Assembly: GCA_949948715.1 (NCBI GenBank)
Contig: CATLGW010000005.1
Coordinates: 21,951-85,950, forward strand
Source of the DNA: an uncultured Lachnospiraceae bacterium
GTDB taxonomy: Bacteria; Bacillota; Clostridia; Lachnospirales; Lachnospiraceae
Reading direction: 5' to 3'
DNA length: 64,000 nt
Below the pieces are notes generated by a model. That model saw only the letters and a program-made list of their open reading frames with translations. It did not search any database and had not been told where the DNA came from. A program made the translations under genes and the position numbers. Below, one piece after another: positions 8,576 through 15,549 of this stretch. The number at the start of each line of letters is the position of its first letter. Within the stretch, counting starts at the first letter, position 1.

Positions 8576-8604
8576 TTGACAGGCCCTTTTTTGTGCGATA
8601 CAAT
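8576..8604 (+). promoter_or_regulatory. Strong SigA-type promoter of the restriction-modification operon
   Basis: TTGACA, 17-nt spacer, TACAAT. Confidence 0.8.
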
Positions 8605-8635
8605 AGGGAAAGAAAACAACGGCAAGGGTGTGGAT

Positions 8636-10552
8636 ATGCGTTACCTGGGAAACAAGACAAAGCTGCTCCCCTTTATCGAGAGCGTGATGAAAAAATATCA
8701 TATCCAGGGTCAGGTGTTTGCGGATCTCTTTGCGGGCACGGGCTCCGTGGGGGATTTCTTTAAGGACAGGTATCATGTGGTGGCAAACGACTATATGCGT
8801 TTCTCCGGAGTGCTGTGCGCGGCGAAGCTTTGGAACAGGCGGCCCCCCGCCTTTACCAGGTTTAAGAGGCTGTATGGGTCGGAGCCCTTTTCCTGGCTGA
8901 ATGCCAGGGAGTACGGCCCCCGGGAGGATTTTTTTCTCTATGAGAACTACACGCCCCGGGGGGGACGGATGTATCTGACGGAGAAAAACGCGGCCAGGAT
9001 AGACGGGATGCGCCAGGACATTGAGGAATTTTACAGGGATAAGGATATAAAGGAGGAGGAATATGTGTTCCTTCTGGCCTCTCTACTGGAATCCGTGCTG
9101 AAGGTGTCCAACACCTCCGGCACCTACCAGGCTTATTTCAAGTTCTGGGAGCAGCGCTCCCTGAAGGACTTTGTGCTGGAGCCCCTGGAGATGAGGGAGG
9201 TGGCGGGCAGGGGATCCCTTAGGAGGGTCAACCGGATCTACAGCGAGGACTCCAACGCTCTGGTCCGCAGGATTTCCGGGGACATCGCCTACATAGACCC
9301 TCCCTACACCATCACCCAGTACGCCAATTCCTATCATCTTCTGGAGACCTTGGCCTGCAATGACAGGCCGGAGATCTTCGGGAAGACCGGGAGGCGCTCG
9401 TCCAGAGAGCTTTCGGGCTACTCCAATAAGCAGCAGGCCATCATAGAGTTTGAGGATCTGTTCCGGCAGCTTGACTTTGACCATGTGTTGGTGAGCTACA
9501 GCAATCAGTCCATTGTGCCCCTGGAGAAGCTGGTGGAGCTTGCCAGGCTTTTTGCCGTGGATCACGCGGTGTATGTGGAGACCAACGACTACAGGGAGTA
9601 TGCCACCAACAATTTGAGCGGCAAGGGGGCGGAGGAGGGACTGAAGGAGGCCTTGATCTATTTCAGAAAGGACCGCACCATTCACAAGTCCCCCCTAAAT
9701 TACTCCGGCAGCAAGGATAAGCTCCTGCCTCTGATCTATAAGCTTCTGCCCAAGCGGGTGAGTACCTTTGTGGACGCCATGGGGGGAGCCTTCAATGTGG
9801 GAGCCAATGTCCTTGCCACCGGGCGGGTGGTGTACAATGAATATAATCCTTACGTATACGGGATTGTGGATATGCTGGTGAACACTCCCAGGGAGGAACT
9901 CATCGGCCGGGTGGATCGTCTGGTGGCGGAGTACGGGCTTTGCAGGGAGAACAGGGAGGCCTACCTTGCGCTGCGGACGGCCTTCAATGAGAACAAGGCC
10001 CCCCTGTATCTGTTCACCCTTCAGATTCACGCCTTTCAGAATATGATTCGGTTCAACAGCCGGATGCAGATGAACACGCCTGTGGGCAACAATGAGTGGA
10101 ACGAGGGCACCAGGGACCGCATCCGGAATTTCCGGGTAAAGGCCCCGGAATATGAGATGCGCCTGGGTCCCTATGAGGAACTGCTGGAGGCGCTCCCGGA
10201 GGTTTTGGGACTTTCGGAAATCCCGGCGGATACGGTGTTTTATTTTGACCCTCCCTATTTTATCACCAACGCGGAGTACAACGACGGAAAACGGGGGCTG
10301 GAAGGATGGGACGCAGGTCAGGAGCGGGCGCTTTTGGACTTTTTGTCCGTACTCCATCAGCGGGGGTACCGCTTCCTGCTCTCCAATGTGCTGAAGCACA
10401 ACGGCAGGGAGCACGGGATGTTAAAGGAGTGGATTGCGGAAAACGGATTCCATGTGACCCAGATCGGCCGGACGGGCATCAAATATCCCCGGACGGAGGT
10501 GGTGGTGACCAATTACAGGCCTGTGGGAGCAAGAGAAGAGTTTCTGATTTGA
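8636..10552 (+). CDS. Tandem (two-domain) D12-class N6-adenine DNA methyltransferase, M.FokI/M.LlaI-like
   Basis: Domain 1 FADLFAGTG and YIDPPYT; domain 2 FVDAMGGAFNVG and YFDPPYF; about 638 aa. Confidence 0.9.
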   Translation: MRYLGNKTKLLPFIESVMKKYHIQGQVFADLFAGTGSVGDFFKDRYHVVANDYMRFSGVLCAAKLWNRRPPAFTRFKRLYGSEPFSWLNAREYGPREDFFLYENYTPRGGRMYLTEKNAARIDGMRQDIEEFYRDKDIKEEEYVFLLASLLESVLKVSNTSGTYQAYFKFWEQRSLKDFVLEPLEMREVAGRGSLRRVNRIYSEDSNALVRRISGDIAYIDPPYTITQYANSYHLLETLACNDRPEIFGKTGRRSSRELSGYSNKQQAIIEFEDLFRQLDFDHVLVSYSNQSIVPLEKLVELARLFAVDHAVYVETNDYREYATNNLSGKGAEEGLKEALIYFRKDRTIHKSPLNYSGSKDKLLPLIYKLLPKRVSTFVDAMGGAFNVGANVLATGRVVYNEYNPYVYGIVDMLVNTPREELIGRVDRLVAEYGLCRENREAYLALRTAFNENKAPLYLFTLQIHAFQNMIRFNSRMQMNTPVGNNEWNEGTRDRIRNFRVKAPEYEMRLGPYEELLEALPEVLGLSEIPADTVFYFDPPYFITNAEYNDGKRGLEGWDAGQERALLDFLSVLHQRGYRFLLSNVLKHNGREHGMLKEWIAENGFHVTQIGRTGIKYPRTEVVVTNYRPVGAREEFLI

Positions 10553-10583
10553 GATTCCGCGAAGCGGAAGTCTGGAGGGGAAA

Positions 10584-11570
10584 ATGAAGCTGATGCTGGA
10601 CAATCGGAGGGATAACGGGTATCCGTCCGTCTTTGAGAAGGCGGATGTGACGCTGCCTGCGGGGGAGGACAGGAGGGCGTGGTTTGAGGAGCGGATTCTG
10701 GCGGCTCTCAACAGGTACAATCCCAGGCTGCAGGTGACGGAGGTGGTTTACGGGGATATCAGGGCTCGCTTTCCCTCCGCCAGGGCGGGCATCACCTCCG
10801 GCGTGATTTACCAGGAGCGGGAAATTGCGTTTGAGGAGATGGAAAATTACCGGATCAGGGGCTATGCCTCCTGGGTCGAGGGCGGCTCCTTTATAGCCGG
10901 GCGGATCAGGGCCTATGTCTATATGCCGCTGCCGGCAGTACAGGGAAAGAGCGAGGGCAGAAACACCCTGGTGGCTCAGACCTTGTTTCCCACGCTCATC
11001 GACTATATGGGGGAATATCTGGATTCCCCCGGCTATGAGCCCGCCAATCATCCTGTCTTTTTTGTAAATGTCAGAACGCAGGAGATCTCTGCCTCCAGCA
11101 CCAGGAAGGATTTGGCCTCTCTGGCTCTGGTGGGGATTCGCTATGTCGACGTTTTTGGGGAGGAGCGCAGGAGGCCTCTTTACTTAGAAGAAGTGCCCGG
11201 GGAGCTGAGGGAATTTCTGATGCAGTATGACGAGAGATTTCAGGCAAACTATGACCAGGGGGCAGAGCGTTATGAGAATCCGTATCTGCGCATCTTCTTT
11301 AGAGAAAAAAGGCTTATAATCAAAAGCGACGCAGCGGTGGAGAAGCTGGTCTTTAAGGAAGGGCTGTATGATTTCGGCGGCAGCGGGGAGAAATTCTATT
11401 GGATGAATATCTATCCCATGGCCATAGCGGCCTATGAGCAGGGATATCAGGTGGATATCACGGCCTACAGGGAGTTTGTGGAATATTATGAGGCGCGGTT
11501 TTCGCCCTACAGTGAGAAGATGGCAAGGTGCAGGACGCTGCTTCTCTACTTTGAGAAATATATGGTGTGA
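10584..11570 (+). CDS. Uncharacterised restriction-associated protein, 328 aa
   Basis: ORF inside the methyltransferase/McrB-like operon with SD ggagggg; no motif recognised. Confidence 0.7.
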   Translation: MKLMLDNRRDNGYPSVFEKADVTLPAGEDRRAWFEERILAALNRYNPRLQVTEVVYGDIRARFPSARAGITSGVIYQEREIAFEEMENYRIRGYASWVEGGSFIAGRIRAYVYMPLPAVQGKSEGRNTLVAQTLFPTLIDYMGEYLDSPGYEPANHPVFFVNVRTQEISASSTRKDLASLALVGIRYVDVFGEERRRPLYLEEVPGELREFLMQYDERFQANYDQGAERYENPYLRIFFREKRLIIKSDAAVEKLVFKEGLYDFGGSGEKFYWMNIYPMAIAAYEQGYQVDITAYREFVEYYEARFSPYSEKMARCRTLLLYFEKYMV

Positions 11571-11669
11571 GGGAAGCCGGAAGGCGAACAAATCATTGCG
11601 CATATGATTTTTACAAGAGCCGGAGCATGGATACCGGAATGCAGGCTGCAGATAAAGGAGAGTGTGGAT

Positions 11670-12668
11670 ATGCACGAACAGAAAATTTATTTCGGAGCCC
11701 CCGGCACGGGGAAGAGCCATCTGATTCGGGAAAGATTACAAGGCATGAGAGGGGACAAAATTTTTCGGGTGACCATTCACCCGGAGTACGCCTACTCTGA
11801 CTTTGTGGGACAGCTTCTGCCGGAGAACAGGCGGGAGGGCGGCGTGCACTTCCCCTTCCGCCCGGGTCCCTTTACGGAGGCCCTGGCGGAGGCTTTCGCC
11901 GATTTCGCCCAGGATGTGTGCCTGGTGCTGGAGGAGCTCTCCCGGGGAAATGTGTCGGCTATCTTCGGCGATATCTTTCAGTTGTTAGACAGGGACGGGC
12001 ATTTTAGGAGCAAATACCCCGTGAGGAACAAGAATGTCGCCGACCGGATACCGGAGCTATCCACCGACGAGATTTGGCTGCCTTCCAATCTGAGCATCCT
12101 GTGCACCGTGAACATGAACGACCAGAACGTGTTTCCCATGGACACGGCTTTCAAGAGGCGTTTTGACTGGGAGTATGTGTCCGCGGAGCCGGCCAGGAAT
12201 CCGGAAACGGGGGAGGTTTTGGCGAGGCTCAATAACCCCGGGATTTCGGTGGCGGTGGACGGGGAGAGGGAGAATGACCTGGAAACCACCTGGCAGTCCT
12301 TCTATATGGCCCTGAACCGCTTTATCACCGACAGGAGAGAGGGGCTGGGCCGCAGCGAGGACAAGCAGGTGGGGCAGTTTTTCATTGACTTTGGGGACAG
12401 CCTTACGAAAAGCTCCCACTCTCATGACCCGCAGGAGACGCAGGGGGCAAAACAACGGGTGGACGAGCTGATCCGCAATAAGCTCCTTTTGTATCTGTGG
12501 CAGGATGTGCAGGGAAACTCCGCCTTTCAGGGCAGGGCCAGGCTGTTTGACGATTCCGTGAACAGCTATGATGATCTGTACGGCAGGTACGGCCGGGAGA
12601 GGGTCTTTGGGGAGGTTTTCCTGGAGCGATTTCTCAGGCCCCAGAGGGAGCGGTATCCCTATGTCTGA
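11670..12668 (+). CDS. McrB-like AAA+ GTPase restriction subunit
   Basis: Walker A YFGAPGTGKSHLI; Walker B VCLVLEELSRGN; TVNMNDQNVFPMDTAFKRRFDW. Confidence 0.92.
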   Translation: MHEQKIYFGAPGTGKSHLIRERLQGMRGDKIFRVTIHPEYAYSDFVGQLLPENRREGGVHFPFRPGPFTEALAEAFADFAQDVCLVLEELSRGNVSAIFGDIFQLLDRDGHFRSKYPVRNKNVADRIPELSTDEIWLPSNLSILCTVNMNDQNVFPMDTAFKRRFDWEYVSAEPARNPETGEVLARLNNPGISVAVDGERENDLETTWQSFYMALNRFITDRREGLGRSEDKQVGQFFIDFGDSLTKSSHSHDPQETQGAKQRVDELIRNKLLLYLWQDVQGNSAFQGRARLFDDSVNSYDDLYGRYGRERVFGEVFLERFLRPQRERYPYV

Positions 12669-12765
12669 GAAGGGGTGCGGGAGAGGTTTTTATTCTGCAG
12701 GCTTTGCGCCGTGCAAGGCCTGAACCGTCGGCCGCTTTCAAAGGGCAGCGGCAGGGAGGATAGAG

Positions 12766-14092
12766 ATGATCATTGTCTGGGCCAACGACGGACAGCCCTG
12801 TGAAAAGAGAAGAATAGAGGAATTGGGATTTTCCATAAATCCTGCCAGGGATTTGAGAAGCGGACGCCCGGGGGAGATTTCTGTTTGGGGGGGAGGTCTT
12901 TGTCGGGGGAAGCGATTCCGGCCGGGAGCTTTCGGCTCCGGGGGATACCGCGGCATTGCAGGTTCGGGAGAACGCTTCCTGTGAGGTCTACGATTTTGTG
13001 GGTTTTCTCACCAATGAGGACAATGATTTGATGGCGGTGTTTCCCAAGCATTTTGCGGTGCAGAATCCGGAGGCGGACGCGGCCCTTTTATTCCGTGTGA
13101 TCAACCGGCACCGGCAGCGCAGACCGGATTGCTACATAGGGGAGAGGTACGGGGAGGCCTTTTCCTCCGACTATCCCTTTGCGGCCTTTTTCGGCATCTA
13201 TGAATATTACAGCAGATTCGGGCTGTATGTGCAAAGCAGGCAGTTTGTGAAGCCGGGCACGGGGGGAAGGGTAAGCTGGCGGGATACCCTGAGGCTGGCG
13301 GGAATATATCTGTCGGGGGAAGAGCCGGTCCTTTACCCCTTGTACCACAGGACAAAATACGTGTTCTCCGATTTCCTGACGGAGTGCATGATCTTTGCCA
13401 TCGACTATACCCTGGAGAAGTTCGGGTGTTTTCTGGGGCTGCCCCGGACGGGGAGGGCGTTTCCCGAGACGGATTTTCTAAGTGAGAGGGAAGCCGTGAC
13501 GGAGACGCTGATACGCCTGAGAGAGGGGGAGTTTCGGGATGAGCAGCGGGGGCTTTTTGATCACTTGATCGCCTATTTTTCCTCGATTCGGGAGGGAGGC
13601 GGCTTCTATTTCAAATTCTACGGTTTTTCTTCCGTGTGGGAGGATATGGTGCGGGAATATCTCAACCGGAATTTCAGCAGGGCTACGGAACAGGGGATGG
13701 TCTTTGACAGAAGGAGGGCGGCGGGGCTTACCTTTGAGAAGACGGCCTTTTGTGTAAATCTGGCGGCGCCGGGTCAGAGGATAGAGCCGGACGCTTACGC
13801 CGTGTGGGGGGAGGAACAGTATATCCTGGACGCCAAGTATTACACGGCAGTGGGCGGACTGGATTACAAGCAGACGGTATACCATATGTTCCTGTGCGGT
13901 ATGAAAAGGGGAGCGGATGGTGAAAATCCGCTCTTTCGAAGGACGCACACGGCCCTGGTACTGCCGGGTAGGAAGCGGGAAAGCAGGCTGCATTTAAAAC
14001 CGGATCCCCGCTTCGGCAGGGGCCTGGAGGGCGTGAGGATATGGGAGGAATACCTGGATATCCGGGAGGTAATGGAGGACTACGACAGATAG
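12766..14092 (+). pseudogene. LlaJI/McrC-like restriction endonuclease subunit, frame-interrupted at a G7 tract (frame 1 12766-12984, frame 2 12857-14092)
   Basis: ATG 12766 has an SD (gggagg); removing one G at 12887-12893 joins ...EISVWG to GEVFVGGSDSGREL...; nuclease motif IEPDAYAVWGEEQYILDAKYY. Confidence 0.75.
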
Positions 14093-14127: not shown

Positions 14128-15549
14128 TCACCGGGTCGTTCCCGGAGGCAGCATGGCGCACAGGGCCTGGTAGATTTCCAGGGTGGCCTCCTCGGTGTAG
14201 CCGCTGAAATAGTAGACATTGCTTTCCGTCTCAATCCGCAGGAAGGCCTCGGCCATGGGATTTAAGCATTTTTCCACTCTGCCCTCGGCGCTGTTTCGGA
14301 AGGTTCCCTTCTCCAGGGTGCTCATGTTGGTGCCGTGGACCTTGGAGCCCTTGGGCAGCTCCGTGCAGAGAGCAGCCGAGAGGATGGAGTCCAAGGGGAC
14401 GGCGTACTCCGTGTTCAGATGCTCCGCCACCAGCGTCTCTCCCTGCAGGGTCAGGTTTAGGGGGGTAAATTCCTCCAGAAGGAGCCATACGCAGGACAGG
14501 GGGATGGCCAAGAGCGCCAGGACGGTGAGGGCGCTGAAGGTCTTGCCTATGGGGGTGGCCATATTCACGGTGGTTCCCAGGCCCACTCTTTTCTCCACTA
14601 TGGCGCGGCGGTCCCCGGGGTTGTAGTACAATATGCCGCCGATCCAGCCTTTTTCCTCCTGTTCCTCCAGAAGCGGGTCCCGTTTATCCGCGTACAGCCG
14701 CTTCAGCTTTTCCTTCCTGGCTCCCAGGAGGCAGGTAAAGGCCAGGGAGATGAGACAGAGAGTAATGCTTCCCAGCATACAGAGCCAGAAGCCGGTCCGG
14801 TCCGAGGGATGGGGACGCAGGAAATAGAACAGCAGGACGGCTGTGAACCCGGTCATGAGGCAGCAGTTTGCCAGCCAGAACCTTTTCCAGAGCTTCTTGT
14901 TGGCCCGGGAGAAGTTTACGTTCACATCGCTGTCCCTGCTGATGACCTGGGCTTTCATGCGGTCCGTCCACAGGGCGCAGCCCATAAGAAACAGATTGAA
15001 AGCGGCGTAGACCGCGATGATTACCCCGTAGGACCAGAGTCTCTGTCCGTGGAGGCAAAGGAGCGCGCAGGCGGCCAGGCCCAGATTCAGGGCGGCCAGG
15101 GGCAAAAGCTCTCCGGGGCGCAGGGTGCGTATATGGCCCGCCTCCCGGATCTCGTAAAAGCTGGGGGTCTCGCATTCCGAAGGGACGGCCCGGGACTGCT
15201 TGATTGCCTTCACCCGGTTAAAACTCTGGGCGTAGGGCAGACAGCACACCCCGATCAGGGCCAGGGTCCAGATCATCCAGACGGTGAGGGAGACGGAGGT
15301 ATAGGGGATGAGCGGGGTGGCCAGGGGGATCAGGGCCATGACTGCCAGAATCCGCTTCATTTTCTTTTTGTAGGTCTGAATGATTTCTTCTTTCTCCTGG
15401 TCGGTGAGCCATTCCCGGGAGATCCGGATTCCGAACAGAGAACCCTTCTGCTCTTCCAGGGCGGCCATCTGGAAGAAATACAGGATGGGGAGCACGGGGT
15501 ACAGCCCCACGAACATAATGACGGTCAGTATGATATTTGTTTCTTGCAT
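14128..15549 (-). CDS. Multi-TM membrane protein (possibly DUF1648/DUF5808-type)
   Basis: 473 aa with multiple hydrophobic segments; downstream of a short GntR regulator. Confidence 0.65.
   Translation of the reverse strand: MQETNIILTVIMFVGLYPVLPILYFFQMAALEEQKGSLFGIRISREWLTDQEKEEIIQTYKKKMKRILAVMALIPLATPLIPYTSVSLTVWMIWTLALIGVCCLPYAQSFNRVKAIKQSRAVPSECETPSFYEIREAGHIRTLRPGELLPLAALNLGLAACALLCLHGQRLWSYGVIIAVYAAFNLFLMGCALWTDRMKAQVISRDSDVNVNFSRANKKLWKRFWLANCCLMTGFTAVLLFYFLRPHPSDRTGFWLCMLGSITLCLISLAFTCLLGARKEKLKRLYADKRDPLLEEQEEKGWIGGILYYNPGDRRAIVEKRVGLGTTVNMATPIGKTFSALTVLALLAIPLSCVWLLLEEFTPLNLTLQGETLVAEHLNTEYAVPLDSILSAALCTELPKGSKVHGTNMSTLEKGTFRNSAEGRVEKCLNPMAEAFLRIETESNVYYFSGYTEEATLEIYQALCAMLPPGTTR

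What the first reader, a model, noticed from the sequence alone, without database searches (positions are those of the whole stretch)
8576..14092. LlaI-like restriction-modification operon: tandem adenine methyltransferase plus McrB-like motor and LlaJI/McrC-like nuclease
Seen: a promoter (TTGACA-N17-TACAAT) followed by four co-directional genes. The first encodes a methyltransferase with two complete D12-type domains (two DPPY motifs). It is followed by a 328-aa unknown protein, an AAA+ protein with GAPGTGKS, and a protein with a PD-(D/E)xK-like motif (EPDAY...YILDAKYY). Known: M.FokI/M.LlaI are two-domain adenine methyltransferases for asymmetric sites, and LlaI, LlaJI and BsuMI use McrB-like NTPases for restriction. 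Inference: this is a chromosomal, NTP-dependent, asymmetric-site system of LlaI type rather than a simple type IIS pair, and the 328-aa protein is an uncharacterised obligate subunit.
Basis: partly seen in the sequence, partly recalled or inferred. Interest (0 to 1): 0.8.

Follow-up and report, generated by a model that had tools for sequence, protein, structure and literature searches.

The report
Gut-bacterium LlaI-type restriction-modification operon
This is a chromosomal relative, in a gut Lachnospiraceae bacterium, of LlaI, a known phage-defence system of cheese bacteria that marks its own DNA and uses a motor-driven nuclease against unmarked DNA; the type is known, but here the nuclease gene is broken by a frameshift and one subunit still has no known fold.

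Summary
M (8636-10552), R1 (10584-11570), R2 (11670-12668) and R3 (12766-14092) each match, in the same order, the LlaI operon as found in an Enterococcus genome and, partly broken, on a Lactococcus plasmid next to abiA. Identities to the Enterococcus copy are M 61%, R1 29%, R2 56% and R3 39-43%. The R2 tree puts it with LlaI at 100/100 support, apart from LlaJI and McrB. The '328-aa unknown' is the counterpart of LlaI's first restriction gene, so it is not new.

Corrections: R2 starts at 11670, not 11604. R3 is not the 378-aa ORF from TTG 12956. Its conserved N-terminus lies in another frame (12766-12984) and the gene is frameshifted, best explained by one extra G at 12887-12893. As assembled, the nuclease is probably off; motor and methyltransferase are intact.

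The copy looks long-resident: host-like GC and the same chromosomal site in a sister genome. It lacks the XRE gene found upstream of M in the LlaI copies. R1 is the natural candidate for a separate DNA-recognition subunit; support is circumstantial (a fused protein in L. amylovorus) and no fold was recognised. New member of a known kind.

The parts
8576..8604 (+). sigma-70-like promoter TTGACA-N17-TACAAT
   Evidence: 11/12 match; consensus match only
8636..10552 (+). M: bifunctional D12-D12 N6-adenine methyltransferase, 638 aa (M.LlaI counterpart)
   Evidence: Pfam E=2e-62; 61% identity over full length to LlaI M of L063; PADLOC MTase_II PDLC03287 736 bits; N-terminal half 65% identical to phage C41431 'LlaI methylase'
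10584..11570 (+). R1: 328-aa counterpart of LlaI's first restriction gene; no Pfam/NCBIfam/PADLOC/PHROG family above cut-off, no recognised fold; proposed DNA-recognition subunit
   Evidence: 29-30% identity, E=2e-34 to LlaI R1
11670..12668 (+). R2: McrB-like AAA+ NTPase without an N-terminal domain, 332 aa (LlaIB, 337 aa, counterpart)
   Evidence: 56-58% identity to LlaI R2; McrB GTPase chains 6ut3, 6hz4 by profile; R2 tree 100/100 with LlaI
12766..12984 (+). R3 N-terminal part, frame 1 (72-aa ORF); the first 36 aa are conserved with intact R3 of L061
   Evidence: (67% over 36 aa)
12887..12893 (+). run of seven G inside an imperfect tandem repeat of about 18 nt; likeliest place of the +1 frame change
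   Evidence: R3 genes of L061, L062 and L034 have no run of five or more G in this region
12857..14092 (+). R3 main part, frame 2 (TTG 12956 is only the first possible start): PD-(D/E)xK nuclease, LlaJI family, EPDAY/DAKYY
   Evidence: Pfam RE_LlaJI E=4.4e-6, over the cut-off; 39-43% identity to LlaI R3

Best explanation
A chromosomal LlaI-type restriction-modification operon of an Acetatifactor-type Lachnospiraceae. M methylates adenines of an asymmetric site, one D12 domain per strand. R2, an McrB-like AAA+ ring, uses NTP to move on DNA and activates R3, a PD-(D/E)xK nuclease of the LlaJI/McrC kind, which cuts DNA lacking the methyl marks. R2 has no N-terminal DNA-binding domain, unlike McrB and LlaJI R1, so site recognition is most likely supplied in trans by R1. 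Shown here: homology and colinearity of all four genes with LlaI, intact catalytic motifs, the frameshift in R3, the absence of the XRE gene. Inferred: the biochemical steps (from LlaI, LlaJI and McrBC) and the role of R1. In the assembled sequence R3 is probably not made at full length, so this genome is predicted to methylate but to restrict little or not at all.
For: All four genes match LlaI in order. The yardstick is LlaI: R2 of L002 and L063 is 337 aa, the length published for LlaIB (PMC1459862); L002 carries the cassette beside abiA, and pTR2030 is known for both restriction-modification and abortive infection (reference titles in PMC4712225 and PMC11077055); a phage gene annotated 'LlaI methylase' is 98% identical to the N-terminal half of L063 M. 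The R2 tree puts window and LlaI in one 100/100 clade, apart from pNP40 LlaJI and the genus's own McrB-like proteins. M is 61% identical to LlaI M against 37% to a FokI-associated M. R1 as recognition subunit: an L. amylovorus plasmid has M, then one 590-aa protein with about 306 aa ahead of the AAA+ domain, then a LlaJI-family nuclease; that N-terminus shows weak similarity to R1 at a similar position (hhalign E=0.011, best of 8 shuffles 0.22; 27 of 5000 shuffles reach its HMMER score).
Against: The link of R1 to the fused N-terminal domain is not significant by HMMER (4.7 bits), and neither predicted model of R1 matches a known fold. Recognition sequence and NTP use are untested. The R3 frameshift means that this copy may not restrict. 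The XRE gene of other LlaI copies is missing.
Confidence: 0.88

Rival explanations
1. A simple FokI-like type IIS system whose methyltransferase happens to sit next to unrelated genes.
For: M also has relatives beside FokI-type nucleases (L004, 37% identity).
Against: Same four genes in the same order in window, L061, L062 and L063, and M-R1-R2 in L066; M is far closer to LlaI M.
Confidence: 0.02
2. A modification-dependent (McrBC-like) system whose methyltransferase is incidental: it cuts methylated, not unmethylated, DNA.
For: R2 matches McrB GTPases and R3 weakly matches the McrBC family.
Against: The methyltransferase heads every complete copy of the operon seen; R2 groups with LlaI and not with McrB-like proteins of the genus; R3 passes the LlaJI cut-off but not the McrBC cut-off; LlaI is described as recognising an unmodified sequence (PMC3874153).
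Confidence: 0.04
3. A decayed LlaI system: R3 was lost by mutation and M now acts as a solitary methylase. This is a statement about the state of this copy and is compatible with the best explanation of its kind.
For: R3 is frameshifted in the window and, at a different place just before the catalytic D..DAK, in L062; M, R1 and R2 are open in both.
Against: R1 and R2, useless without R3, are still open; both are MAG assemblies in which a one-base error is possible; L061 and L034 have R3 in one frame.
Confidence: 0.35
4. The run of seven G in R3 is a phase-variation switch that turns the nuclease on and off while M stays on.
For: One G fewer would join the two frames (GEISVW / GEVFVG repeat).
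Against: Seven G is short for a contingency tract; the tract is absent from other R3 genes; L062 is broken elsewhere.
Confidence: 0.07

Closest known systems
LlaI (Lactococcus plasmid pTR2030; copies in L063 Enterococcus and, broken, L002 pUCCL629C)
   Same: Four genes in the same order; two-domain adenine methyltransferase; R2 of about 335 aa without an N-terminal domain; LlaJI-like R3; homologous R1.
   Different: Chromosomal and at host GC here; no XRE gene before M; no fifth gene after R3; R3 frameshifted; R1 only 29% identical.
LlaJI (pNP40)
   Same: McrB-like motor plus LlaJI-family nuclease that restricts unmodified DNA.
   Different: Two 5mC methyltransferases; the motor carries its own N-terminal DNA-binding part (585 aa in all); R2 only 34%, R3 only 21% identical.
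BsuMI (B. subtilis)
   Same: Published as a three-ORF restriction cassette with a short (343 aa) LlaIB-like motor (PMC1459862).
   Different: Different methyltransferases (from own knowledge, C5-cytosine); YdiR could not be compared with R1 here.
FokI-type IIS systems (e.g. L004 pUCCL630B)
   Same: Fused two-domain D12 methyltransferase.
   Different: Single FokI-type nuclease, no motor; M only 37% identical.
McrBC
   Same: AAA+ motor and PD-(D/E)xK nuclease partner.
   Different: No methyltransferase; targets modified DNA; the motor has its own modified-base reader.

Membership tests
LlaI | Fused two-domain D12 adenine methyltransferase at the head of the operon | tested here: met
   two motif I/DPPY pairs, 61% identity to LlaI M over full length
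LlaI | Three restriction genes after M, homologous and in the order R1-R2-R3 | tested here: met
   R1 E=2e-34, R2 56%, R3 39%
LlaI | Short (about 335 aa) McrB-like R2 without an N-terminal domain | tested here: met
   332 aa; LlaIB 337 aa in PMC1459862
LlaI | Nuclease gene R3 in one open frame (needed for an active system, not for homology) | tested here: not met
   frameshift between 12857 and 12984; in one frame in L061 and L034. The claim is therefore 'LlaI-type locus', not 'active LlaI system'
LlaI | Small XRE gene directly upstream of M (accessory, not one of the three restriction genes) | tested here: not met
   present in L063, L002, L066 and phage C41431, absent in window, L061, L062
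LlaI | Restriction of unmethylated phage that needs all three genes; recognition site | not testable with these tools
   needs an experiment
LlaJI | Two C5-cytosine methyltransferases and a long R1 with N-terminal DNA-binding domain | tested here: not met
   one adenine D12 methyltransferase, 332-aa R2
LlaJI-family nuclease (Pfam RE_LlaJI) | Score above the curated cut-off and PD...DxK motif | tested here: met
   26.6 bits against cut-off 23.6; EPDAY/DAKYY
McrBC | McrC family match above cut-off; no methyltransferase | tested here: not met
   PF10117 15.2 bits against 23.9; M present
FokI-type IIS | FokI-type nuclease next to the fused methyltransferase | tested here: not met
   none of the four proteins matches one; compare L004

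The most novel reading that the evidence does not exclude
R1 is a free-standing DNA-recognition subunit of an undescribed fold that gives an McrB-type motor its site specificity in trans, a split version of what is one protein in LlaJI, McrB and the L. amylovorus plasmid system.
Probability: 0.45. Interest if true: 0.45.

Novelty: new member of a known kind. Interest (0 to 1): 0.32.

Why it matters
It extends LlaI, known from lactococci and reported in Listeria, to chromosomes of gut Lachnospiraceae, where it looks long-resident rather than newly acquired. It supplies diverged R1 sequences for a subunit that no family library or structure searched here covers, and a natural split/fused pair (window against L. 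amylovorus p2) that makes the question 'which subunit reads the site in LlaI-type enzymes' testable.

Tried and rejected
Single-sequence searches with R1 in viral contigs and genome contigs found nothing; the alignment found three loci; phages and viral contigs again gave none. By profile R1 is rare: 3 of 391 genomes of the class, the window's own included, and 1 of 130 in the family of G1120. R1 against PDB by sequence: none. Fold searches with two AlphaFold models of R1 (mean pLDDT 72 and 68): no match at E<=0.001; a weak MUS81/EME1 match (E=0.015, TM about 0.2) for LlaI R1 was not accepted. R1 against the LlaJI R1 N-terminus (pNP40): hhalign E=0.019 but rank 725 of 4552 in HMMER, so inconclusive. 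The weak GPW_gp25 hit of R1 (E=0.0065, below cut-off, one member of five) is taken as chance. A recent mobile island was rejected: operon GC 0.54-0.57 against 0.551 for the window and the same site in a sister genome. O'Sullivan 1995 is not held, so it is used by title only.

Full report
What is there. Four co-directional genes follow a good sigma-70-like promoter (8576-8604). M (8636-10552, 638 aa) has two full D12 methyltransferase domains. R1 (10584-11570, 328 aa) matches no family above cut-off. R2 (332 aa) starts at ATG 11670, not 11604, judged by its homologues, and is an McrB-like AAA+ protein. R3 carries the LlaJI/McrC-like nuclease motif.

R3 is frameshifted. The conserved R3 N-terminus is read at 12766-12984 in one frame, and the rest in a second frame that is open only from 12857 and has no ATG or GTG start before the conserved part. 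Homologues are 409 (L061), 422 (L034) and 464 aa (L063) in one frame. The change falls in a linker of variable length that here holds an imperfect tandem repeat (GGGGGAGATTTCTGTTT/GGGGGGGAGGTCTTTGTC). Unit one reads GEISVW in the first frame and unit two GEVFVG in the second, so one extra G in the run 12887-12893 is the simplest account (inference). The genome is an incomplete draft (67% complete, 54 contigs), so an assembly error cannot be excluded. In L062, from another genome of the genus, R3 is frameshifted at a different place, just before the catalytic D..DAK.

It is LlaI. R1 has one plasmid relative, on Lactococcus pUCCL629C, next to a LlaJI-family gene, an AAA ATPase of 337 aa and abiA. 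The 337 aa equals the published size of LlaIB, and LlaI and BsuMI are published as three-ORF cassettes with short motors (PMC1459862). An Enterococcus genome holds the same cassette intact (L063). All four window proteins match it in order: M 61%, R1 29% (E=2e-34), R2 56%, R3 39-43%. A phage gene annotated 'LlaI methylase' is 98% identical to the N-terminal half of L063 M and 65% identical to that of window M. The tree places window R2 with LlaI at 100/100, away from LlaJI and McrB-like proteins of the same genus. LlaI has also been reported in Listeria (PMC5417603, PMC12006667).

Context and history. The record titles of two sister loci name Acetatifactor. In L061 the operon sits at the same site, downstream of nrdD-nrdG and convergent with the DUF5808-GntR pair, but with another gene (feoB-like instead of a SpoIIE-type phosphatase) just upstream. 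In G033 an R3 gene sits beside the same DUF5808-GntR pair at a contig end. GC of the operon equals that of the window, while the Enterococcus copy is at 34% and the L066 copy at 27%. This fits long residence in one clade. Within the genus sample, four of 138 genomes, the window's own included, have the short LlaI-type motor (72-100% identity); the other 31 genomes with a match have longer McrB-like proteins of 37-49% identity. R1 is rare elsewhere.

Difference from LlaI. L063, L002, phage C41431 and L066 have a 72-78-aa XRE gene (broken in L002) directly before M; window, L061 and L062 do not, and in the window only 65 bp separate M from the gene before it. The title of O'Sullivan 1998 (reference in PMC3874153) concerns control of LlaI expression; that this XRE gene is that controller is my inference.

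What R1 may do. McrB and LlaJI R1 carry their DNA reader as an N-terminal domain (PMC7680126, PMC12707154). R2 of the LlaI type has none, so R1 or R3 must supply it. On L. amylovorus p2_CACC736 the M relative (46%) is followed by one 590-aa protein, about 306 aa plus the AAA+ domain, and a LlaJI-family nuclease: the place of R1 is taken by a fused N-terminal part of about the same length. Sequence similarity between the two is only suggestive (hhalign E=0.011; 27 of 5000 shuffles as good). R1 is also the fastest-changing subunit (50-53% between genus members, against 72-75% for M and R2). Models of R1 gave no fold match.

Verdict. A new chromosomal member of the LlaI kind, probably nuclease-deficient as assembled.

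Noticed in passing
L062:4573-5790: The R3 gene of a second Acetatifactor genome is also frameshifted, just before the catalytic residues, with M, R1 and R2 open.
   Followed up: partly
L066:3225-6763: A diverged LlaI-type operon (M 58%, R1 26%, R2 cut off after 179 aa) next to a helicase-like gene of what looks like a mobile element, in another Clostridia family, with its own XRE gene.
   Followed up: partly
L003/L083 (NZ_CP104881, across the record start): L. amylovorus plasmid with M, a fused 590-aa N-domain+AAA+ protein (not in the gene table, spans the record start), and a LlaJI-family nuclease.
   Followed up: partly
L082:2283-3592: Lactococcus phage C41431 carries the XRE gene and the N-terminal LlaI methylase domain only, a likely counter-defence.
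   Followed up: partly
L063:11441-13330: LlaI copies in Lactobacillales have a further gene after R3 with an HExxH-like stretch (MHECVHWH), which suggests an ImmA-type protein; absent in the window. Function not tested.
   Followed up: no
window 14128-15549: DUF5808 protein next to a GntR regulator, a pair kept together in several genomes of the genus.
   Followed up: partly
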